This document shows, piece by piece, positions 26,227 to 63,725 of a stretch of DNA of 64,000 nucleotides. The position numbers and the translations under genes were made by a program. The notes below the pieces were generated by a model. The model had not been told where the DNA came from. It did no database searches and was given only the letters and a program-made list of their open reading frames with translations. This stretch comes from a virus. The stretch covers positions 62,001-126,000 of IMG/VR virus record IMGVR_UViG_3300031603_000001; one strand, 5' to 3'. Numbering within the stretch: the stretch's first letter is position 1; every line of letters starts with the position of its first letter.

Positions 26227-26867
26227 TAAGCCCCAGCCCCAGTTGGAACCCTTCGCCGCAAGTACGCATTGTACTTGTGTGCTTTTTCGATAGTCCAAAG
26301 GCCTTCGTTCTTCATTTGCTCAACTGCAGTTTCGGGTAATGTATCCCCGACCTTTTCAATAAGCTCTTTGAACTCAGCCATCTGGTCGTCACGAATTGCG
26401 TACAGATTGCTAACCTGTGGCGCTGTTTCGTGGTCTTCTCCACGATACAAATATGCACCTAGTCCGAATGATGCAGCACATCTACGCAGCAATGAAGCGC
26501 GCGCGATAGTTGCAGGTGGAATATTACCACCACCATCCATAGAGGTTGGAGCATTAGCGTCATAGTACCCGACGTTGTCACGCCGTACACCATAAATATC
26601 AAGGTGTCCGTACAAAGTAAGCCACTTGCTACCCTTGGTCTCCTCAGTAATGATAAGCTTCCACCCCGGTACGACAGTGTTCAGTACGGCTTCAATATCT
26701 ATCCACTTAATATAACTAAGTGCATGCCCAGTGTGTGGGTCATTGAAAGTACTAATCAATTCGACAGGCAGGGGCATACCTAGCGCATCAAGGATTTGTG
26801 TATCCCATTTGAGAAAACGCTTGGTAGGTACCGGCAGCTTAAGATCAGCTATTGTTATCTTGGCCAT
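26226..26867 (-). CDS. Rad52/22-type single-strand annealing protein
   Basis: 213 residues from the ATG at 26867, which has AGGAGG eight bases upstream. The core shows G-W-K-L-I-I-T, then W-L-T-L-Y-G-H-L-D-I-Y-G-V-R-R-D-N-V-G-Y, then A-R-A-S-L-L-R-R-C-A-A-S-F-G-L-G-A-Y-L-Y, the strand, strand and helix pattern of Rad52/Rad22 recombinases. Such proteins anneal complementary single strands during phage recombination. Start overlaps the dNMP kinase stop. A RecA-family protein is encoded separately at 41646. Confidence 0.72.
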   Translation of the reverse strand: MAKITIADLKLPVPTKRFLKWDTQILDALGMPLPVELISTFNDPHTGHALSYIKWIDIEAVLNTVVPGWKLIITEETKGSKWLTLYGHLDIYGVRRDNVGYYDANAPTSMDGGGNIPPATIARASLLRRCAASFGLGAYLYRGEDHETAPQVSNLYAIRDDQMAEFKELIEKVGDTLPETAVEQMKNEGLWTIEKAHKYNAYLRRRVPTGAGA

Positions 26868-27543
26868 TAGCGGCCCTCCTTGTTTCGACTTCCGGAAGCA
26901 CATCTTCCAGAGTTCGTTTAAACAGCTCCGACTTGTTATACCGAGCCGTAGCTGTTATGTCTTTCTTATGAGGTTCTTTGTACAGCTGAACCCCAAACCC
27001 TGTGTCCACTATCAAAGCATCCCAAGGCATATCTTTATACCCTAAGTCCAGTGATAGTTCAGAGACGTCGTCGTCCACTCCGGGAGTGAAGGTATACCCA
27101 CGTCGGATACGTTCTTGTAGAACTGTTTCTATCCGGATAGAGTACACCAATATATCATCAAGCTTCTTGAAATATTCAATCTCATTTAGGAACCTGCAAT
27201 CCGGTACGATAATAATGTCCGCACCGCCTGCTTCGGCTACATCTTGTAGCTTAATACACCAGTAATCCACATCCTCAGCGCGCCTTTGTTGACCTAAAGA
27301 GATCATAGCAGGACGCCACTTCTTTTTGATAGGGCTACTGTTGTCTTGGATAGATTTAATTGATGGTATCTCATCAGGATAAGTATCCATCAACTCCTGC
27401 CGTATAGCATCTGCTAGATGATGTATAGCAGGGTCCTCCGGTGTCGCAGTACTCCAGCGCATGGCATTAGTAAGTGCCTCGGCTAGAGTATCTTTGCCAT
27501 TCAACCGCTTCCCTGATATCAACACATAGATTTGTTTTGACAT
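26845..27543 (-). CDS. deoxynucleoside monophosphate kinase (T4 gp1-like)
   Basis: 232 residues. P-loop S-G-K-R-L-N-G-K17-D-T near the N-terminus, then L-G-Q-Q-R-R-A-E-D-V-D-Y-W, V-P-D-C-R-F-L-N-E-I, and a lid-like basic helix L-Q-E-R-I-R-R-G. This matches the phage dNMP kinase group that phosphorylates several dNMPs, including modified ones. Its ATG overlaps the stop of the ThiF-like gene by one base, and it feeds the NrdJ/ThyX dNTP pathway. Confidence 0.72.
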   Translation of the reverse strand: MSKQIYVLISGKRLNGKDTLAEALTNAMRWSTATPEDPAIHHLADAIRQELMDTYPDEIPSIKSIQDNSSPIKKKWRPAMISLGQQRRAEDVDYWCIKLQDVAEAGGADIIIVPDCRFLNEIEYFKKLDDILVYSIRIETVLQERIRRGYTFTPGVDDDVSELSLDLGYKDMPWDALIVDTGFGVQLYKEPHKKDITATARYNKSELFKRTLEDVLPEVETRRAANGQDNNS

Positions 27544-28148
27544 CAGAAACTACAGCGGAGTTTTAAAGGCTTCTTTACACCACGATAGTGATTCATCAGA
27601 GCCTGTGCACCGAACAGCGCCGCCATCCGGTTACCAAGCTGAAGTAATCCAGCCTGTAAATCTGCTTCAATAGCACAACCGCGTGTGTTATTCTCAGGCT
27701 TAAGCGATTCCTGAGTAATCTCCAGCAGCTGATCGACAGTCATCTTTGAATCCTTATTGATACAAATAGACTCTCTACCTTCTGCCCGTAGATCAATCCA
27801 GTACGGAACCTTGTCCTGTGCTTTGAACACCATACGTCTAAACGCAACGTTATCCACAGCAATCATGACTACATCGAAGTCAGCTAATTGATCCATAGTA
27901 TTAACACGTTCACGTACAACTTCATCAATAGCATACCCTTGCTCGACCAATGCATCAACCTTATACATCATACCATCTGCATGAAACTCGTCAAAGTTTT
28001 GATACAATACATTCCTACGTTCAACAAGATCATCGTCGAACACAGTTAAATGCATGTCAGGCATTTGACTTGACTTGATCTCTTCATCTGCAATTATATC
28101 CACTGCATATGAACCGATTCCGCCAGCACCTACCAGTGCTACCTTCAT
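27543..28148 (-). CDS. ThiF/MoeB/E1-like adenylyltransferase
   Basis: 201 residues, near the minimum for the fold. Rossmann motif G7-A-G-G-I-G12; acidic F-D-D-D40 followed by V-E-R-R-N46-V-L-Y-Q50, matching the D-x-V-x-x-x-N-x-x-x-Q segment that holds ATP; K63-V equals the conserved Lys of MoeB; A-V-D99-N100 with R104 equals the D-N-x-x-x-R that binds magnesium. The Arg of the family's R-Q pair is Tyr here. The two CxxC zinc pairs of MoeB and ThiF are absent; Cys129, Cys158 and Cys199 are thiolation candidates. Starts directly after a gene ending Gly-Gly. Expected to adenylate that Gly-Gly protein. Confidence 0.78.
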   Translation of the reverse strand: MKVALVGAGGIGSYAVDIIADEEIKSSQMPDMHLTVFDDDLVERRNVLYQNFDEFHADGMMYKVDALVEQGYAIDEVVRERVNTMDQLADFDVVMIAVDNVAFRRMVFKAQDKVPYWIDLRAEGRESICINKDSKMTVDQLLEITQESLKPENNTRGCAIEADLQAGLLQLGNRMAALFGAQALMNHYRGVKKPLKLRCSF

Positions 28149-28361
28149 CTATCCGCCTACTACTTGGGCGATCAATTCGATAAATGGTTCAGCATCTATC
28201 ATAGGCTGAGTCAACGACTCAGGAAGTACACGTTTGCCGTCCAGGATAATCCAGGCTTCATGCTTAATAGCATCGGCTTTGATGGCTTCAATAGCCTCTA
28301 TAGAAGGAACATTATGCGCCTTTACAGATTGGTTCACGAAATATTCAGTAAGACCTGTCAT
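28149..28361 (-). CDS. ThiS/MoaD-like ubiquitin-fold protein ending Gly-Gly
   Basis: 70 residues. The second half, A-W-I-I-L-D-G-K-R-V-L-P (36-47), then A-E-P-F-I-E-L-I-A-Q-V-V-G-G (57-70), aligns with the ThiS C-terminal pattern (strand, N-G-x-x-V-P, D-G-D-x-I-E, V-x-G-G). The chain stops exactly at the double Gly, the adenylation and thiocarboxylation site in this family. GGAG precedes the ATG, and the stop is immediately followed by the ATG of the ThiF-like gene. Sulfur carrier or protein-modifier roles are both possible. Confidence 0.72.
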   Translation of the reverse strand: MTGLTEYFVNQSVKAHNVPSIEAIEAIKADAIKHEAWIILDGKRVLPESLTQPMIDAEPFIELIAQVVGG

Positions 28362-28397
28362 ATTTTCTCCAATATAAACATTAATAGTGACAATGCA

Positions 28398-28452: not shown

Positions 28453-31005
28453 CTACAGGGTATCGATGTCAGTCGACAGCCGCATATCATTTGCCAGAAC
28501 ATACAATCTGGAGACCAGTTTCTGTTCAGGATAAATGTATTCAGCTTTATCAACCATACATATATACTCACCTGTTTTGTACCGAAAGACACTAGCATAG
28601 CTGTTTGATTCAGTACTCAATAGGTAGTCATCCAGACCGCCTTTGATTCTGTATCCGTTAATCGCGGATTGATTTAATGGTGTACACACTGCAGGTACAG
28701 CAGAGGTTAGCTTAACAGCACGAACAATAGAGCTTGCCAGAATAATCTTAGTGGCACGATATCTTTCAGCAGCTTCTTGATACAGCATATTATGCAGTCC
28801 CATCATCCGATCTTGAAATCGAAGGGCACGTGCAGCTAACTTAGCTTTACTAGGCTTACGACGTAGTGCAATAATCTTGCCGTCGGATCCCCTATTAGCT
28901 TTGTGTGTCTTACGTTTCTTAGGACGACACACTCTGTCCATTAGAGTGGAAAGCGCTAGAGGCCCAAGTCCTCTGTCCTGCTTCTTAGTAAACCAGGACG
29001 CACCCCCGCAGTGGAACGTACCGTACTTACTCTCTAGTTGAATAGACTTTCCGTCCTTAGTAGGTTCAAATTCAAATAGAATTCCACCATCCATACCAAC
29101 GTTCTGAAACTGTAACCCACGGGCTACAATGTTACGAAACGCTACAGACATCTTCGATACCTGAGAGAGGTACTCATCGAAATCTGATTGTGTATTACAC
29201 ATGAAAGCATAACGAACAACTTCTTTGAAGTCATCGTTTCTTATCTTCACACCATTAACTATAAGAGGACTGCCAATTTGATAGGTAGTGAAGCGTAACT
29301 TCACATCCCCAAGTTGTACCATCATTGCATGTATCTGATGCAGGCTGCTTTCTTTCCAACCAGCCATGGTTACCGCTTTAGGACCTTCTATTGGATATCT
29401 ATCCAAACGATGCCCACTGTACTCTTTGTATACAGTGGGAAGATGTGCCTCAACTGATGACATTACCAAGTCATAAGTTAACTTAGATATCTCAGCGCCG
29501 GAGGCGGAGTAACCAAGCACGGAACATGCGCCCATAGGTACGTTAACGATAGCAATATCATCAGAATCTTTCGAAGCCGCACCCTGACGGATAGAAATGA
29601 TAGTACCTGAGACTTCCTGTCCTTGGTACATCACACGGTTCTCTTCGTAGATCATATCATTATAGGCTAGTCTATTGTGACCATTGATACGGTCATCATA
29701 AACAGCTTTAAGACTTTTCGTAGATAATCCATGAACTCCAGAGCCACTCGCCATTTGGGCAAGACGTTGACTAGAACGTTGATTTAATACAATCAACTCA
29801 ACAGCAACATCTTTAGGCATGAAACCTGACATAGAAGAGTCAGCACTAATCATGGTTTTACCAGGCACCTCGTAAATATCTTTATCGACACTCCAATTAT
29901 AGATTGCCTTTACATTTCTACGGTTGGTACTTAAGCGGCGCGCAGTATCTCGGAGATCTTTCTGAGCCCAGTTCAATCCAGAACTTAACTCATGACCTGC
30001 CAAGGAACTTAATATCACAGTCCACTTATCGGAACTTGTATCCAAGTATGAATACATCAACTGATCAGGATCCAGAGCATTGTATAGCGCAGCCTGTGAG
30101 GAATGTACAACTAGGTACTGTTCCATACTCCCATTGATATCGTAACATCTAGTTATCCTAAGGTTGTTATCCATCGGATGTACTTTAATCTTACACTTAT
30201 GACGGTAGCTTACTATAGTAGACATCTCTCCGGTATCACCGTAGAATGCTACATTACAATTGTCCAGCTTACCAGTAGTAGTAGCGCCTCGTCTCCAGAA
30301 ATGGAAAGGCTCAACCTTACTGACAAGACGATTAACCATCTTCTCATTAGAGGTTTGTCCATCAGCATGCTGCAGCTGTACACTACCTGTTGCATCCACA
30401 TCAACGTGCACTCCTTTAACAGTGCCCAGGGTTGTTTGCAGGGTTTTAGTAGACGCTAAAGCTTCTTCAGTCTTAGCAATCCCCTTGTCGTAATCAAACT
30501 CCACCGGTACAACCAGGTGGCCATTTGGGAAATACAAACAAGGGCCTACTTTGCCTAACGTGTATGCCAGTTGCTTAAGAGCAGCCTGTTGATAGATATC
30601 ACTCCACTTAAGGATAACACCTCTTTGCATGATAGGTATAGTGAGAGCATCAGCGTTGCTGTAGCTTCTCCCAGGGTTCCTTAGAACAATCAATTCAAAC
30701 TGAAGTTGTTCTAGCTGCTTAGGATCAATGGTACCGTCGATGATTGCATCTAGATCCGCAGCGGACTTAATAAAAGGATTCTCTGAAGCAGAGACATCGA
30801 TGAATCGCAAGCCAGCTACGATCGAAGAGTTGTCTGGATTTAACAGCTTAGATATCAGCAGTATCTCGAGGGCTTTGTAGTACTCCTCGCTCTCTTCGAT
30901 GGATGTTGTGTAGTTCTGTAAGAACATAGCAATGCCAGGCATCTGCGCTAAGTGGGGTCCATCACCAACGCGCAGTGCCTCCCAATAATGTCTATTCAGT
31001 TTCAT
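28453..31005 (-). CDS. 850-residue protein of unknown function
   Basis: 850 residues, overlapping the primase stop by 14 bp. No Walker, zinc, nuclease or polymerase motif was found. A strongly basic segment about residues 690-740 (R-P-K-K-R-K-T-H-K, R-R-K-P-S-K-A-K) would suit nucleic acid binding, and S-A-D-S-S-M-S-G and G-A-C-S-V-L-G-Y-S-A-S-G mark Gly/Ser-rich turns in a mixed alpha/beta body. Position just after primase, sigma factor and polymerase suggests a replication or transcription role. Large and unassigned, so worth structural comparison. Confidence 0.75.
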   Translation of the reverse strand: MKLNRHYWEALRVGDGPHLAQMPGIAMFLQNYTTSIEESEEYYKALEILLISKLLNPDNSSIVAGLRFIDVSASENPFIKSAADLDAIIDGTIDPKQLEQLQFELIVLRNPGRSYSNADALTIPIMQRGVILKWSDIYQQAALKQLAYTLGKVGPCLYFPNGHLVVPVEFDYDKGIAKTEEALASTKTLQTTLGTVKGVHVDVDATGSVQLQHADGQTSNEKMVNRLVSKVEPFHFWRRGATTTGKLDNCNVAFYGDTGEMSTIVSYRHKCKIKVHPMDNNLRITRCYDINGSMEQYLVVHSSQAALYNALDPDQLMYSYLDTSSDKWTVILSSLAGHELSSGLNWAQKDLRDTARRLSTNRRNVKAIYNWSVDKDIYEVPGKTMISADSSMSGFMPKDVAVELIVLNQRSSQRLAQMASGSGVHGLSTKSLKAVYDDRINGHNRLAYNDMIYEENRVMYQGQEVSGTIISIRQGAASKDSDDIAIVNVPMGACSVLGYSASGAEISKLTYDLVMSSVEAHLPTVYKEYSGHRLDRYPIEGPKAVTMAGWKESSLHQIHAMMVQLGDVKLRFTTYQIGSPLIVNGVKIRNDDFKEVVRYAFMCNTQSDFDEYLSQVSKMSVAFRNIVARGLQFQNVGMDGGILFEFEPTKDGKSIQLESKYGTFHCGGASWFTKKQDRGLGPLALSTLMDRVCRPKKRKTHKANRGSDGKIIALRRKPSKAKLAARALRFQDRMMGLHNMLYQEAAERYRATKIILASSIVRAVKLTSAVPAVCTPLNQSAINGYRIKGGLDDYLLSTESNSYASVFRYKTGEYICMVDKAEYIYPEQKLVSRLYVLANDMRLSTDIDTL

Positions 31006-59423: not shown

Positions 59424-59428
59424 ATATG

Positions 59429-59509
59429 TACCACTGGAGGGAGTCGAACCCCCACGCACTTAGCACTGCGCCCTAAACGCAGCGTGTCTACCAGTTTCAC
59501 CACAGTGGC
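59429..59509 (-). tRNA. tRNA-Leu (UAG)
   Basis: Class II tRNA: acceptor GCCACTG/CAGTGGT, anticodon stem CTGCG/CGCAG with loop TTTAGGG (anticodon TAG), a long variable arm and T arm GGGGG-TTCGACT-CCCTC. CCA is not encoded. Confidence 0.9.
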
Positions 59510-59517
59510 ATATTAAC

Positions 59518-59655
59518 TATACGGGTCCGATTTGATACGGACACCCACTTTTACCTCCGCCCGACGAATACACGTCTTTGCTACTGTTTTCACTATTAGT
59601 CCCTTCATAGGGAACATCCTGCTTCTGCCAGTTTGGGGCTCTCGGTCACCGCGGC
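59518..59655 (-). other. degenerate tRNA-like segment
   Basis: A D-arm stretch (AAACTGGCAGAAGCAGGATGT) resembles that of the tRNA-like sequence at 54774, followed by a GTTCCCT/AGGGAC hairpin in place of the anticodon arm and, 60 nt on, an extended T-arm-like hairpin with TATCAAAT loop (59523-59546). Acceptor pairing is not recognisable. Confidence 0.3.
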
Positions 59656-59776
59656 TAGACGTATCATAGAGCAACTATGAATTGCGCTACTTAAATCTGT
59701 GGGCTCACAAGCCATGAGAGGGGTTACTTACCGCACGGCCAGCCGGCCTAACGCTTACCCAACCATATGTTAATTC
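59656..59776. other. spacer without recognised feature
   Basis: No supported gene. Contains several GC-rich inverted repeats (GGCCGGC near 59740) but no clear terminator. Confidence 0.4.
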
Positions 59777-59995
59777 TTATTGATAATACAAAGCATCATA
59801 CTTTGATATATTCAAACTAAATCCAAGTACATCGTGGAAAAACCTACACGCACTACTAAATGGTGGCAACCCGGGATACATCCCATCCGTATCCAGTGCC
59901 TGGCTGACATCCGTCGTCCAGTACACGTGTAACTTATCAATAGTATCATTATGTATGAAGTATTTCATGTCGTACCAAATCTTATAGGCTTTCAT
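59777..59995 (-). CDS. unrecognised small protein
   Basis: 72 residues, GGAGAG two bases before the ATG. Tyr/Trp-rich. An eight-pair hairpin (GTCATCCT/AGGATGAC, 60016-60036) lies just upstream. Function unknown. Confidence 0.5.
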   Translation of the reverse strand: MKAYKIWYDMKYFIHNDTIDKLHVYWTTDVSQALDTDGMYPGLPPFSSACRFFHDVLGFSLNISKYDALYYQ

Positions 59996-60071
59996 TACTC
60001 TCCGTAGTACTGCCAGTCATCCTGTTTTAGGATGACGGGCAATCACTTTATATGCTATTATTTCATGTATG

Positions 60072-60148
60072 TGCCGTAAAATGGATTCGAACTCACATAC
60101 TCCCGTTTTGCACGCGGACGCCTGCCCAATCCAGCCATCTAGACAGAT
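60072..60148 (-). other. degenerate tRNA-Cys-like sequence
   Basis: D arm GCT/GGC and an anticodon loop GTGCAAA (anticodon GCA) on stem TCCGC/ACGGG with one mismatch; the T loop TTCGAAT is present but its stem and the acceptor stem do not pair. Probably a decayed tRNA. Confidence 0.4.
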
Positions 60149-60166
60149 TTCATAGATCCTGGTCTA

Positions 60167-60772
60167 TTAGTATGTATCTCCGAAACAAATAGTGATATCC
60201 TCGTTCAACATGTCCAGGACTTTAGAACCGCCCTTGACAAAGATCTCTGATAAATCACTTCTCATATGCCAAACATTTAGTATACGATTCATTATAAGTA
60301 AGCGAGCCGTAGCGTCAGACGTAGCTATAGCTTTGGTAGCTAACTCAAGTAAAGGACTAAGACCATAGTCAGATATAAATACCTGACGATCAAAATCATA
60401 AAACTGGAAACATTGAGGATCATACCACGCATCGTGCCAGTCCTCTACTTGTTTCGAAGTTAAATTAAAGTATTCCTCGGGATTAGTTTGAGTATGGCCA
60501 GCTAGTATAGTATTAGCATTGAGTTTAGCTATATTCCACAAAGACCTCTCGATAACCTTATGGACTTGTTTCTCATGACCATGCTGTAACACACCTACGT
60601 ATGAATACTGACGGAACAATCTTTGCAGAATCAAAGGATTTACAGGCCTCATTGGCATGTAACTCTTCTCTAATACTTTCTCCCGCAGTGCTTCCTTAAT
60701 AGGTTCTTCATATTGCTCGATCCAATCCCACATCGCATCATGATTCACGATGCTTGATGATAACTTCTTCAC
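60167..60772 (-). CDS. unrecognised helical protein, GTG start
   Basis: 201 residues from a GTG overlapping a TAG (TAGTG at 60770-60774). Mainly helical with Trp and His (E-D-W-H-D-A-W-Y-D). No family recognised. Confidence 0.55.
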   Translation of the reverse strand: MKKLSSSIVNHDAMWDWIEQYEEPIKEALREKVLEKSYMPMRPVNPLILQRLFRQYSYVGVLQHGHEKQVHKVIERSLWNIAKLNANTILAGHTQTNPEEYFNLTSKQVEDWHDAWYDPQCFQFYDFDRQVFISDYGLSPLLELATKAIATSDATARLLIMNRILNVWHMRSDLSEIFVKGGSKVLDMLNEDITICFGDTY

Positions 60773-60902
60773 TAATAAGATACGCTATGACCTCGTCGTT
60801 TCTCTATCACTACATGTGATATAAACCAGATTAGCATTGAGATTAACCCCATAATAAGTCATGTTTGGACTTTTTGTATGAGGGTTAAATGTGACAGATT
60901 TA
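60773..60902 (-). other. gap with possible micro-ORFs
   Basis: Three short ORFs could fill the gap: 15 codons starting at 60905 (ATGA overlap with the gene upstream), 25 codons overlapping its TGA, and 26 codons from 60852 whose TAG overlaps the next GTG (start M-G-L-I-S-M-L-I-W-F). None has a convincing Shine-Dalgarno. Confidence 0.3.
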
Positions 60903-61163
60903 TCATGCTTCGCCTGCCTCTTCGAGTTCTTCTTGATTAAAGTTCCAGAGCTTTTTCTTCATATCCTGAAGTCTACCCTGAGCTACGTGTTCCTCCGTAT
61001 AAGGTTCTCTGCTAGCGCGTAGTTCGTCGAGCTTTTCCTTAGTAGGATCAACGAAGTCAGCTCTAACTGAGGTTATTCCTACGTAATAACCACATGTTAT
61101 TGAACAACATAAGTAATCTTCTACTGCTCTAAAGCAGTCTTTAGTTATACATTTATATTCCAT
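60903..61163 (-). CDS. small Cys-rich protein next to tRNA-Asp
   Basis: 86 residues from the ATG at 61163, three bases past the tRNA-Asp 3' end; an earlier ATG lies inside the tRNA. C-I-T-K-D-C and C-C-S-I-T-C could bind zinc. The C-terminus is acidic and helical. Function unknown. Confidence 0.5.
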   Translation of the reverse strand: MEYKCITKDCFRAVEDYLCCSITCGYYVGITSVRADFVDPTKEKLDELRASREPYTEEHVAQGRLQDMKKKLWNFNQEELEEAGEA

Positions 61164-61165
61164 AG

Positions 61166-61241
61166 CGGGGCGTACGAGATTTGAACTCGTGGTTTCTACC
61201 TTGACAAGGTAGTGCATTAAGCCGGATTATGCTAACGTCCC
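61166..61241 (-). tRNA. tRNA-Asp (GUC), first copy
   Basis: Acceptor GGGACGT/ACGCCCC (one A-C mismatch at the fourth pair), D arm GCAT/ATGC, anticodon stem CTACC/GGTAG with loop TTGTCAA (GTC), T arm ACGAG-TTCAAAT-CTCGT, discriminator G. CCA not encoded. Confidence 0.85.
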
Positions 61242-61246
61242 TTAAA

Positions 61247-61456
61247 TCATACACTATTGAGTTTGTCCATCTGGAGCTTACTCCATCTAGACATGTACTC
61301 ATTTATATCAAGCGTCTCTGCTGGATCTTCCTCAGGCTGAGTAATAGCCCAGGGATCAAACACAGAGGTACCTACTTGTTCCAATGTAATTGGATTTGCA
61401 GGAAAACACATGAGGTCTATTTTAATAACCTTAACGAGATCTTTATACCTCGACAT
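61247..61456 (-). CDS. unrecognised small protein
   Basis: 69 residues from the ATG at 61456 (GAGG nine bases upstream, 14-bp overlap with the gene before). Pro/Asp/Glu-rich middle. Function unknown. Confidence 0.5.
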   Translation of the reverse strand: MSRYKDLVKVIKIDLMCFPANPITLEQVGTSVFDPWAITQPEEDPAETLDINEYMSRWSKLQMDKLNSV

Positions 61457-62147
61457 GATGTAATTCCTCTTTACCTTCACGTATTACACGAATACTCAGT
61501 GCACGTGCATGTTTGACCTTCTCATCGTCGTACCAACCGCGGTTATCATAACCTAGGTATGCGTACAACGGACCGTTACGGTCGTAAAGCTCATCATCAA
61601 TGGCTTCAATCTGGCGCCATATGACTTCATCAGATATACGGTAATGTGTTACCATATAAGGTTGAATCTTAAGTGCAAATCTCCATTGCTTATCTATTAT
61701 CCAGCGATGGGTAATACCAAAACGTTTAGAATGACTATACGATTTGAAGAAATACTTCTTTAAATGTTCAGGTACTTTATTGTAATCACGTTGTGATAGA
61801 GATTTGAGTACTTGAATAGTGTTAGTCTTAGTCTTAGGACGATTACGATAATGACGTCTGAACTTACTTCCCTTTACAGGTTTGATATGAGTAAAGCTTT
61901 TATCCCGACTGTACGTAGTGTGATTCACATACTTAAGTAGCTCTGTAAAGATAGCCGCCTGGCTGCTGCGTAGAACATCGTCCCGTACAACAAAGAACCG
62001 TTCGTACCCAACTTGTTCTGGTTTGTCTAGAATAATCCAATGTATGGATTTACTGTATTCTTTACGTAAGACTTTCTCGTTCTGCCGTAGGGTGTTAACT
62101 CTTGCTTCACGACTCTTATGAGTAGCTTGCCGTTCTAGCCTACCCAT
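61443..62147 (-). CDS. unrecognised strongly basic protein
   Basis: 234 residues, Arg/Lys/His-rich (K-F-R-R-H-Y-R-N-R-P-K-T-K) with Tyr-rich C-terminal half. Likely nucleic-acid binding; overlaps its upstream neighbour by one base. No family recognised. Confidence 0.55.
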   Translation of the reverse strand: MGRLERQATHKSREARVNTLRQNEKVLRKEYSKSIHWIILDKPEQVGYERFFVVRDDVLRSSQAAIFTELLKYVNHTTYSRDKSFTHIKPVKGSKFRRHYRNRPKTKTNTIQVLKSLSQRDYNKVPEHLKKYFFKSYSHSKRFGITHRWIIDKQWRFALKIQPYMVTHYRISDEVIWRQIEAIDDELYDRNGPLYAYLGYDNRGWYDDEKVKHARALSIRVIREGKEELHHVEV

Positions 62148-62404
62148 TAAGCTGCAATCTTTATAATACGAGGCCAGCCTTCGGCTTCTGTATTTGATTT
62201 ATTATCAACTACAGCTAAGGGTCCCTTCCGTCGCCAGAAGCGAGCAGGCGTATGTGCATCGCCCTCTCTATGCCAATATTTGCCTATACCACTAAGTTCT
62301 ACTTCTAATCCAAATTGAGTTTGTTCCTCTGCTTCGTTGAACGCAGCAATGGTGAATTCTGTAAACTGAACCTTACCATTCCTATCTTTATGAATTACTG
62401 GCAT
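62147..62404 (-). CDS. unrecognised small protein
   Basis: 85 residues from the ATG at 62404 (GAGG five bases upstream). Alpha/beta with W-P-R-I-I-K near the end. Function unknown. Confidence 0.5.
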   Translation of the reverse strand: MPVIHKDRNGKVQFTEFTIAAFNEAEEQTQFGLEVELSGIGKYWHREGDAHTPARFWRRKGPLAVVDNKSNTEAEGWPRIIKIAA

Positions 62405-62500
62405 AATATCCTCTATAGTTTTAGACTCCGGAGGGCATCGAATCTCCATACAATTAAGCGACGACGTTTAAAGCCGTTGCGTCTACTTATACAATAATTA

Positions 62501-62538
62501 TATGCAGATTGAGTCCTAACTAGGTCTCAATCTGCATA
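62501..62538. repeat. 38-bp near-perfect palindrome
   Basis: TATGCAGATTGAG and its complement flank TCCTAACTAGGT, which itself has CCTA/TAGG arms. Thirteen outer pairs plus four inner. One arm recurs at 63317-63329, three bases upstream of tRNA-Arg. Possible RNA processing or recombination site. Confidence 0.7.
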
Positions 62539-62575
62539 ATTCTTATCCGAAGACTGATTGACCTTCTAGGTTCGT
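62530..62575. repeat. copy 1 of a 40-bp imperfect repeat in the tRNA region
   Basis: The block ATCTGCATA ... TTATC ... GACTGATTGACCTTCT is repeated at about 63479-63515 as ATCTGCATA ... TTATC ... GACTGGTTGACCTTTT, about 75 percent identical. Both copies are intergenic and read into tRNA genes on the minus strand. Confidence 0.6.
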
Positions 62576-62793
62576 GTCTCCGGCATCTGAAGCCATGTAA
62601 CGAGTGACATAGCCCATTTGTACTCTTCCCAGCAACAATAGTTCCATACACTCTCACTATTGTGATTTGGTATGTATCTATTTATAGCGGTAAGGTATTT
62701 GTATAATATAGATTTAGAATGCGGGTCGACACCCGGGCGACTAGGGTTGCTGGAATTGGGTGTAGTCCTCACCAGCGTTGTCTTACCGGTCAT
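62566..62793 (-). CDS. doubtful 75-residue ORF
   Basis: Product begins M-T-G-K-T-T-L-V-R-T-T. GGGA touches the ATG, too close for a good ribosome site. It lies inside a tRNA and repeat region, so it may be spurious. Confidence 0.2.
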   Translation of the reverse strand: MTGKTTLVRTTPNSSNPSRPGVDPHSKSILYKYLTAINRYIPNHNSESVWNYCCWEEYKWAMSLVTWLQMPETRT

Positions 62794-62994
62794 TCCCTTT
62801 TCAGGGACAGTGAGCGGCGTGCATGTTTATACCGTATCTCCTTAGGATGGTGTCATTCGAGGCTACCCTCTTCCTACACTCAGTGCTAAGCACGATCCTA
62901 AATCTATAAAGGTCAGTACGAATGATTCGTGAACAGGCTCATTCAGGCCTTTATACGGCTGATCCATCAGTGTGTACTATCACGATGGGCCCAG
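62794..62994 (-). other. structured spacer before tRNA-Asp
   Basis: No gene supported. TATAAAGG/CCTTTATA (62905-62912 and 62948-62955) encloses an inner ACGAA/TTCGT hairpin, so the RNA here is probably folded. Confidence 0.4.
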
Positions 62995-63066
62995 CGGGGC
63001 GGACGGGGCTCGAACCCGTAACTTCCAGGTTGACAACCTGGTGCTCTACCATTGAACTACCGCCCC
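62995..63066 (-). tRNA. tRNA-Asp (GUC), second copy
   Basis: Perfect acceptor GGGGCGG/CCGCCCC, D arm GTTC/GAGC, anticodon stem CCAGG/CCTGG with loop TTGTCAA (GTC), T arm ACGGG-TTCGAGC-CCCGT, discriminator G. CCA not encoded. Confidence 0.95.
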
Positions 63067-63100
63067 AGATCTAGTGATTTTGTCACGGGGTCAAACATAT

Positions 63101-63231
63101 TATGAGCGACCGGATTCGAACTGGCGCACCTAGCTTAGATTATAGTGTGAGGTAGGTACCGTAATTCACACCTCTTACTAGTATATGACCGGGATTATGT
63201 TCCCGCGCTCTACCAATTGAGCTACACTCAC
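63101..63231 (-). other. tRNA-Met-like sequence with about 60-nt insertion in the variable region
   Basis: Acceptor GTGAGTG/CGCTCAT, D arm GCTC/GAGC, anticodon stem CGGGA/TCCCG with a six-base loop ACATAA (CAT in a shortened loop), then about 60 extra bases containing a GTGTGA/TCACAC hairpin, then a T arm GCCAG-TTCGAAT-CCGGT with one mismatch. Confidence 0.5.
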
Positions 63232-63238
63232 AATTTTG

Positions 63239-63313
63239 TACGCCAGGTAGGAATTGAACCCACGACCTTCCCGTCCGTAGCGGGGCACTCTATCCAGACT
63301 GAGCTACTGGCGC
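63239..63313 (-). tRNA. tRNA-Arg (ACG)
   Basis: Acceptor GCGCCAG/CTGGCGT, D arm GCTC/GAGT, anticodon arm loop CTACGGA (ACG) on stem CCCCG/CGGGA, T arm GTGGG-TTCAATT-CCTAC. CCA not encoded. Confidence 0.9.
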
Positions 63314-63526
63314 ATATATGCAGATTGAGATTTAGTTTGGACTTGCTCCAGGCAGCGGCACTGGTGTTACCCACTTCTGCTACCCTTGGCGTACCTTGTT
63401 ACATTCTGGATAGTTAACATCCCCAGAGCTACAATGATCGTGATCTCGGTTTTCCCGTGCTTACGACACTTATACCTATATCTGCATAGTTTTATCTAAT
63501 TGACTGGTTGACCTTTTACTTAAAAG
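63314..63526. repeat. tRNA-region spacer with repeat copies and hairpin
   Basis: Holds a copy of the palindrome arm at 63317-63329, copy 2 of the 40-bp repeat at about 63479-63515, and a perfect GACCTTTT-ACTT-AAAAGGTC hairpin at 63510-63529. No gene supported. Confidence 0.5.
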
Positions 63527-63529
63527 GTC

Positions 63530-63650
63530 ACTAGAGGGAGGGTTTGAACCTCCCCACCCACCAAACGTCTAGGCATGCCACCTTTGGTGAATTAACGTAA
63601 CAAGAGCTGCGTGTGCTTTGCAAATGCGATGCAGCCTGTCTGTCCAAGCG
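63530..63650 (-). other. tRNA-like T-arm remnant
   Basis: A good T arm GGAGG-TTCAAAC-CCTCC (63537-63553) is preceded on the minus strand by hairpins (CACC/GGTG, GCTGC/GCAGC) that do not form D or anticodon arms. Acceptor partner not found. Probably a decayed tRNA. Confidence 0.35.
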
Positions 63651-63652
63651 CG

Positions 63653-63725
63653 TGGACCACCGGGGGCTCGAACCCCGAACCTCCGCCTTGCAAGGGCGGC
63701 GCTCTCCCAATTGAGCTAGTGGCCC
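63653..63725 (-). tRNA. tRNA-Ala (UGC)
   Basis: Acceptor GGGCCAC/GTGGTCC, D arm GCTC/GAGC, anticodon stem CCGCC/GGCGG with loop CTTGCAA (TGC), T arm CGGGG-TTCGAGC-CCCCG, discriminator A. CCA not encoded. Confidence 0.95.

What the first reader, a model, noticed from the sequence alone, without database searches (positions are those of the whole stretch)
27543..28361. Phage-encoded ThiS-like/ThiF-like pair, a candidate ubiquitin-like system
A 70-residue protein that ends exactly at Gly-Gly and matches the ThiS C-terminal pattern lies directly before a minimal ThiF/MoeB/E1-type enzyme with the nucleotide-binding Asp-Asn and Lys intact but without the zinc CxxC pairs. No thiamin, molybdopterin or cysteine pathway gene, no JAB peptidase and no E2-like gene was seen nearby. 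The pair could thiolate a base, cofactor or tRNA, or conjugate the small protein to host or virion targets, perhaps as counter-defence.
Basis: partly seen in the sequence, partly recalled or inferred. Interest (0 to 1): 0.85.

Follow-up and report, generated by a model that had tools for sequence, protein, structure and literature searches.

The report
Virus-encoded ubiquitin-like tagging system
A large bacterial virus carries its own small ubiquitin-like protein and the enzyme that would activate it, and over a hundred related viruses of bacteria and archaea carry the same set, often with a tag-removing enzyme, which suggests that these viruses chemically tag proteins during infection.

Summary
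On the minus strand of a 198-kb phage record, a 70-residue protein ending exactly in Gly-Gly (28149-28361) abuts a 201-residue E1/ThiF enzyme (27543-28148). Relatives missed by ordinary searches were found with a DNA pattern built on the E1's unusual Asn-x-x-Tyr-Gln motif: 122 related loci in IMG/VR. They show a conserved gene set. In large phages the order is big protein, Ubl ending in Gly-Gly, JAB peptidase, E1. In TFIIB-encoding, presumably archaeal, viruses the same four genes occur, more loosely spaced. With the window left out of the models, its Ubl, E1 and 850-residue neighbour are still recognised (E = 7e-7, 9e-43, 4e-29), each as the only hit in the genome. AlphaFold with the family alignment gives beta-grasp order (pLDDT 77, pTM 0.63), and structure matches are mostly ubiquitin, SUMO, NEDD8 and ThiS. 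The 'big' protein has one cysteine invariant in 45 of 45 members, in a motif weakly resembling the E2 active site. JAB is absent from this record and four related contigs. Best reading: a virus-encoded ubiquitin-like protein-modification system, unlike PRTRC, Bil and CBASS, and not found in the papers searched. Conjugation, substrates and biological role are untested.

The parts
28149..28361 (-). Ubl: 70-aa ubiquitin-like beta-grasp protein ending exactly at Gly-Gly (GG codons 28152-28157, stop 28149-28151)
   Evidence: Leave-one-out family HMM E = 6.7e-7, only hit in the six-frame genome; AF2 with MSA pLDDT 77, beta-beta-alpha-beta-beta-(alpha)-beta; Foldseek matches mostly Ub/SUMO/NEDD8/ThiS
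27543..28148 (-). Minimal E1 (ThiF/MoeB/UBA-type adenylating enzyme), 201 aa, with Tyr49 in place of the NxxRQ Arg and conserved Cys158
   Evidence: Pfam ThiF 1.3e-8; leave-one-out HMM 9.4e-43; profile matches UBA5, Uba4, Cap2, ThiF and MoeB in the PDB
28453..31005 (-). 'Big' partner, 850 aa, with invariant C-terminal Cys816 (EYICMVDK); candidate E2-like/ligase component or acceptor
   Evidence: Leave-one-out HMM 3.6e-29; same gene precedes the Ubl in type A relatives; Cys invariant in 45 of 45
28367..28370 (-). GGAG Shine-Dalgarno sequence of the Ubl gene
   Evidence: sequence
28146..28151 (-). Ubl stop TAG directly followed by E1 start ATG (translational coupling)
   Evidence: sequence
26845..27543 (-). 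Operon neighbour: deoxynucleoside-monophosphate-kinase-like gene whose start overlaps the E1 stop; not shown to belong to the system
   Evidence: PHROG 139 E = 1.3e-19; coordinates

Best explanation
The locus is a reduced member of a virus-encoded ubiquitin-like protein-modification system. Proposed steps: (1) the Ubl is made with a mature Gly-Gly end (shown by sequence), so no processing peptidase is needed; (2) the E1 binds ATP and adenylates the terminal glycine (inferred from conserved active-site residues); (3) the glycine is passed to a cysteine, probably Cys158 of E1, then perhaps Cys816 of the 850-aa partner acting like an E2 or ligase (inferred; weak E2-motif resemblance); (4) the Ubl is joined to lysines of viral or host proteins, most likely proteins of the replication takeover because the genes sit in the replication module (inferred). 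Relatives add a JAB peptidase to trim Ubl precursors and remove the tag; this phage lacks it, so its tagging would be irreversible or reversed by another enzyme.
For: 122 related E1 loci in IMG/VR. Fixed order big - Ubl-GG - JAB - E1 in type A relatives and the same four components in TFIIB-encoding viruses. Leave-one-out recognition of window Ubl, E1 and big. Terminal GG in all syntenic Ubl hits, listed before any GG filter was applied. Tails beyond GG occur only where JAB is present: 18 of 38 distinct Ubls with JAB, 0 of 8 without, Fisher p = 0.015. JAB genes match Pfam Prok-JAB at 8e-10 and 1.5e-11. Beta-grasp model with mainly Ub, SUMO, NEDD8 and ThiS structure matches. Ubl profile finds ubiquitin in the PDB with GG on GG. 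Ubl family vs ThiS-type profile beats 200 of 200 column-shuffled decoys. E1 profile matches UBA5, MccB, TcdA, Uba4, Cap2, ThiF and MoeB. Invariant Cys in big. No ThiS-family, ATP_bind_3, PAPS-reductase or rhodanese match in the record.
Against: No activity has been shown. E1 lacks the Arg that contacts ATP in MoeB-type enzymes (Tyr instead; role of the Arg from own knowledge). No JAB in this record. Structure evidence is moderate: best Foldseek E 9e-3, single-ubiquitin E 0.46; poly-ubiquitin E-values are inflated by repeats. MccB and TcdA show that E1-like enzymes also do other chemistry. The record may be incomplete.
Confidence: 0.65

Rival explanations
1. Sulfur-carrier system: E1 adenylates the Ubl, sulfur is added to form a thiocarboxylate, and the Ubl delivers sulfur to a nucleotide, tRNA or cofactor, as ThiS, MoaD, TtuB and Urm1 do; the big protein would be the sulfur-accepting enzyme.
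For: Terminal GG with no pro-peptide here; minimal E1; overlap with a dNMP-kinase-like gene and location among nucleotide and replication genes; invariant Cys in big could carry persulfide; Urm1-like proteins can do both jobs (PMC5349211).
Against: No rhodanese, PP-loop thiolase (ATP_bind_3) or PAPS-reductase in the record (host enzymes could serve). Relatives pair the Ubl with JAB and carry tails after GG, which fits modifiers; JAB next to ThiS/MoaD in sulfur operons is known, however (PMC1779556).
Confidence: 0.2
2. Decoy or counter-defence use: the phage pair captures or inhibits a host ubiquitin-like defence (Bil, CBASS E1-E2) rather than running its own cascade.
For: Bacteria use such cascades against phages (PMC10097602; Bil summarised in PMC11354881); E1 has weak similarity to PADLOC E1-E2 models (E 4e-4).
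Against: The set is self-contained, with its own E1, conserved partner and JAB, and lies with replication genes, not in a counter-defence island; E1 active-site residues are kept, unlike a pure decoy.
Confidence: 0.08
3. Non-ubiquitin chemistry: E1 adenylates a peptide C-terminus to make a modified peptide, as MccB does with the microcin C precursor.
For: MccB is among the best PDB matches of the E1 profile (E 1e-6).
Against: The partner is a folded 65-90 aa beta-grasp protein with conserved GG, not a short peptide; JAB co-occurs.
Confidence: 0.03

Closest known systems
PRTRC system (plasmid cassette: ThiF, protein A (JAB-like), protein B (E2-like), protein C (Ubl), ParB)
   Same: Best NCBIfam match of the E1 (TIGR03736, E 1e-10); also combines an E1, a small Ubl and a JAB-like protein on mobile DNA
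   Different: E1 scores 41 bits against a cut-off of 145; PRTRC C ends ..GTKG/GTKA, not GG; PRTRC keeps NxGRQ; its E2-like B and ParB genes are not recognised here, and the big protein is not PRTRC
BilABCD (bacterial ISG15-like antiphage conjugation operon)
   Same: Four-part logic Ubl + E1 + E2 + JAB, with JAB maturing a Ubl that has a C-terminal tail (PMC11354881)
   Different: Bil E1 is about 535 aa in the PDB with two adenylation domains and a Cys domain, BilA has two Ubl domains, and it is host-encoded; here E1 is 184-234 aa, the Ubl is single, and the system is virus-encoded
ThiS-ThiF / MoaD-MoeB / TtuB
   Same: Beta-grasp with free C-terminal GG and a compact E1; profile similarity
   Different: Ubl not matched by Pfam ThiS; E1 lacks zinc CxxC pairs and the NxxRQ Arg; JAB and big as partners, no biosynthesis genes
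crAss-like phage E1 + metalloprotease genes (crAss001 Gp76/Gp77)
   Same: Phage-encoded E1 next to a JAB-like protease, NxxRQ Arg also lost
   Different: Separate branch in the E1 tree; no GG-ending Ubl of this family found there
CBASS Cap2 (E1-E2) and Cap3 (JAB)
   Same: E1 profile matches Cap2 structures; uses JAB
   Different: Host defence conjugating cGAS; fused E1-E2; no separate Ubl

Membership tests
E1-like adenylating superfamily (PF00899) | Significant match to the ThiF profile with GxGGxG, DxD, N..Q, K, DN residues | tested here: met
   (34.8 bits, cut-off 28.1)
E1-like adenylating superfamily (PF00899) | ATP-contacting Arg in NxxRQ | tested here: not met
   Tyr49 here and Tyr throughout the type A/B family alignment
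Ubiquitin-like beta-grasp proteins | beta-beta-alpha-beta-beta-beta fold | tested here: met
   AF2 with MSA pLDDT 77, pTM 0.63; Foldseek matches mainly Ub/SUMO/NEDD8/ThiS, best E 9e-3; the single-sequence model was uninformative
Ubiquitin-like beta-grasp proteins | C-terminal Gly-Gly conserved in homologues | tested here: met
ThiS/MoaD family (PF02597) | Match to the PF02597 profile | tested here: not met
   only profile-profile similarity
ThiS/MoaD family (PF02597) | Thiocarboxylate formation and sulfur delivery | not testable with these tools
   needs mass spectrometry
PRTRC system | TIGR03736 above curated cut-off | tested here: not met
   41.4 bits against 144.75
PRTRC system | Protein C Ubl, protein B E2-like, ParB in one cassette | tested here: not met
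   None recognised among the neighbouring proteins scanned; compare
Bil system | Two-domain Ubl, large E1 with Cys domain, CEHH E2, JAB | tested here: not met
   201-aa E1, single-domain Ubl, no JAB in the record
Ubiquitin-type conjugation systems in general | E2-like carrier with catalytic Cys | tested here: inconclusive
   Invariant Cys in big, weak E2-motif match, hhalign P 0.036, 1 of 200 decoys higher
Ubiquitin-type conjugation systems in general | Covalent attachment to target proteins | not testable with these tools
   needs infection proteomics or reconstitution

The most novel reading that the evidence does not exclude
Large phages and archaeal head-tailed viruses share an undescribed, virus-specific ubiquitin-like conjugation cascade made of a Gly-Gly Ubl, a Tyr-type minimal E1, an optional JAB and a new class of E2/ligase (the big protein with the invariant GP[IV]CID / YICIVDK cysteine), used to tag replication or host proteins during infection.
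Probability: 0.4. Interest if true: 0.93.

Novelty: new variant of a known kind. Interest (0 to 1): 0.82.

Why it matters
Known prokaryotic ubiquitin-like cascades are mostly host-encoded, and several defend against phages. A conserved viral set of Ubl, E1, JAB and partner, nearly confined to viruses (122 loci in IMG/VR, 6 contigs among 84,980 species genomes), would mean viruses run their own protein tagging, and that viruses could have been a reservoir for such cascades. The minimal E1 (184-234 aa) and a possible new E2-type protein are small enough for direct biochemistry, and natural versions with and without JAB allow a test of what the peptidase is for.

Tried and rejected
Single-sequence searches of phage, plasmid, viral, Pfam, PHROG and PDB sets found nothing for the Ubl and only distant PRTRC/crAss E1s. 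Phage kinship through DNA polymerase or dNMP kinase found no relatives in viral contigs. A pattern for minimal E1s starting MK[VI] found other phage E1 systems, not this one; the Asn-x-x-Tyr-Gln pattern worked. The single-sequence AlphaFold model (pLDDT 61) was discarded. The first MAFFT alignments misplaced the window N-terminus; trimming to equal length gave a gapless 67-column alignment. Chance was rejected by shuffles and decoys. A non-coding explanation was rejected by codon usage and homology. The big protein has no significant Pfam, PHROG or PDB relative; DUF7737 (E 0.0035) is below its cut-off. Caution: the Ubl lists used were filtered for GG near the end; the unfiltered list shows the same. 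The IMG/VR search selected for Tyr in one of two patterns, so Tyr conservation is partly ascertained. One search's regex for the NxxYQ residue sometimes caught other sites, so the alignment is the one to use.

Full report
What is there. The window is bases 62001-126000 of a 197,958-base virus record, 44% GC. On the minus strand the genes run DNA polymerase, a sigma-factor-like gene (by inspection), primase, an 850-aa protein, the 70-aa Ubl, the 201-aa E1, a dNMP-kinase-like gene, a single-strand-annealing-like gene and ribonucleotide reductase (by inspection). The Ubl has a GGAG ribosome-binding site, its stop abuts the E1 start, and its codon usage is that of long phage genes. The E1 is a true ThiF-superfamily protein with a Tyr replacing the usual Arg of NxxRQ.

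How relatives were found. Sequence searches with each protein found only distant PRTRC and crAss-like E1s. A DNA pattern for DxDx[VLI]ExxNx[VLI]YQ retrieved about 28 viral E1s; an alignment of these (A2) retrieved 122 related loci, 80 of them kept. In 84,980 species genomes only six contigs matched. One of these (L183) also carries a sigma-70-like gene and a DNA-polymerase-like exonuclease gene (by inspection), so it looks like a phage contig binned into an archaeal MAG.

The system. Type A: bacteriophage-like contigs in the order big (552-804 aa) - Ubl - JAB - E1. The window's 850-aa gene is the same 'big' family. Type B: viruses with a TFIIB-like gene, so presumably archaeal, carry E1 and JAB together, with the Ubl and a big homologue some kilobases upstream. 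In the E1 tree types A and B form one group apart from crAss, PRTRC, ME3 and Arash E1s, and the window lies inside type A among JAB-bearing lineages (local supports 0.73-0.91), so JAB loss looks secondary. With the window left out of the models, its Ubl, E1 and big are each the only significant hit in its genome (E 6.7e-7, 9.4e-43, 3.6e-29).

The Ubl. All syntenic hits end in GG or GG plus at most nine residues, and the two glycines are invariant in the 37-member alignment. With a gapless 18-member alignment, AlphaFold gives E2-6, E9-13, H17-30, E33-37, E40-42, H49-54, E57-62 at pLDDT 77, pTM 0.63, the beta-grasp order. Foldseek's best matches are dominated by ubiquitin, SUMO, NEDD8, ISG15 and ThiS (best E 9e-3, TM about 0.6). 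Profile search of the PDB returns ubiquitin first, GG on GG, but only E 0.46 for single ubiquitin. Against a ThiS/TtuB-type profile the family beats 200 of 200 decoys.

JAB and tails. By distinct sequence, 18 of 38 Ubls with JAB have residues after GG and 0 of 8 without JAB do (Fisher p 0.015; related sequences, limited flanks). Whole-record searches find JAB in four control contigs but none in the L132, L133, L134 and L167 records or in the window's own. This fits JAB as a maturation and deconjugation enzyme, as in Bil (PMC11354881).

The big protein. It has no significant match in Pfam, PHROGs or the PDB. One cysteine is invariant in 45 of 45 sequences across types A and B: YIC[IM]VDK in A, GP[IV]CID in B, followed by a helix-like stretch. 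The type B alignment aligns this cysteine to the E2 active-site cysteine (GSICLDIL), with P 0.036; 1 of 200 decoys scores higher. An E2-like role is therefore a lead, not a finding.

Mechanism. Shown: gene set, homology, predicted fold, Gly-Gly, conserved E1 and partner cysteines. Inferred: adenylation, thioester transfer, isopeptide conjugation, targets in the replication takeover. Sulfur transfer is the main rival; no rhodanese, ATP_bind_3 or PAPS-reductase gene is recognised in the record, but host enzymes could serve.

Known or new. Prokaryotic Ubl/E1/E2/JAB operons have been described since 2006, including a Ubl and JAB in phage tail clusters (PMC1779556), and antiphage Bil and CBASS systems are known (PMC11354881, PMC10097602). 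No paper found in the held library describes this viral set, and two papers that discuss magroviruses (PMC10160649 and PMC5628999) do not mention these genes. Subscription literature was not searchable.

Noticed in passing
L036, L037, L039, L042, L045, L052: A second phage Ubl system: a minimal E1 with GNKAxxK and VDNHKTR motifs next to a protein with an N-terminal SAP-like part and a C-terminal Ubl-like part ending AGxKG, plus (in L036, L037, L039, L042, L045) a second E1-like protein ending ETGAA and (in most) a large upstream protein.
   Followed up: partly
L027 4773-8046; L034 7541-9834: Phage loci with a free 74-75-aa Ubl and a minimal E1 near an E2-like candidate (PNIYADGNICAGE / PNVYENGLICLGS); L027 also has a JAB-like gene.
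   Followed up: no
L099 (Acinetobacter phage ME3), L100 (Salmonella phage Arash), L101 (Vibrio phage D69): Cultured phages carry another E1 subfamily (NxxRQNF); ME3 has a gene annotated PRTRC protein A nearby and Arash and D69 a neighbour with weak JAB-profile similarity (E 0.009-0.04); they are tractable models for phage Ubl biology.
   Followed up: partly
L184, L185, L186: Contigs assigned to Aenigmatarchaeota, Omnitrophota and Methanoperedens BLZ2 carry big, E1 and a longer Ubl ending KGG (KMKGG/KVKGG/KGKGG), without JAB.
   Followed up: partly
L183: A contig binned as a Methanomassiliicoccaceae archaeon looks like phage DNA: it holds the full big-Ubl-JAB-E1 set next to a sigma-70-like gene and a DNA-polymerase-like exonuclease gene.
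   Followed up: partly
window phage, G000:C1:184930-187194: The large terminase has only distant cultured relatives: Moorella phage MTATph1, Acinetobacter phage ME3, Bacillus phage KLEB27-3 (24-29% identity), so the phage is an orphan lineage.
   Followed up: no
window 59428-63725: A cluster of five tRNA genes on the minus strand, two of them tRNA-Asp(gtc).
   Followed up: no
L064, L086: A 415-aa WGR-domain-like protein (by inspection) follows the E1 in these two loci.
   Followed up: no
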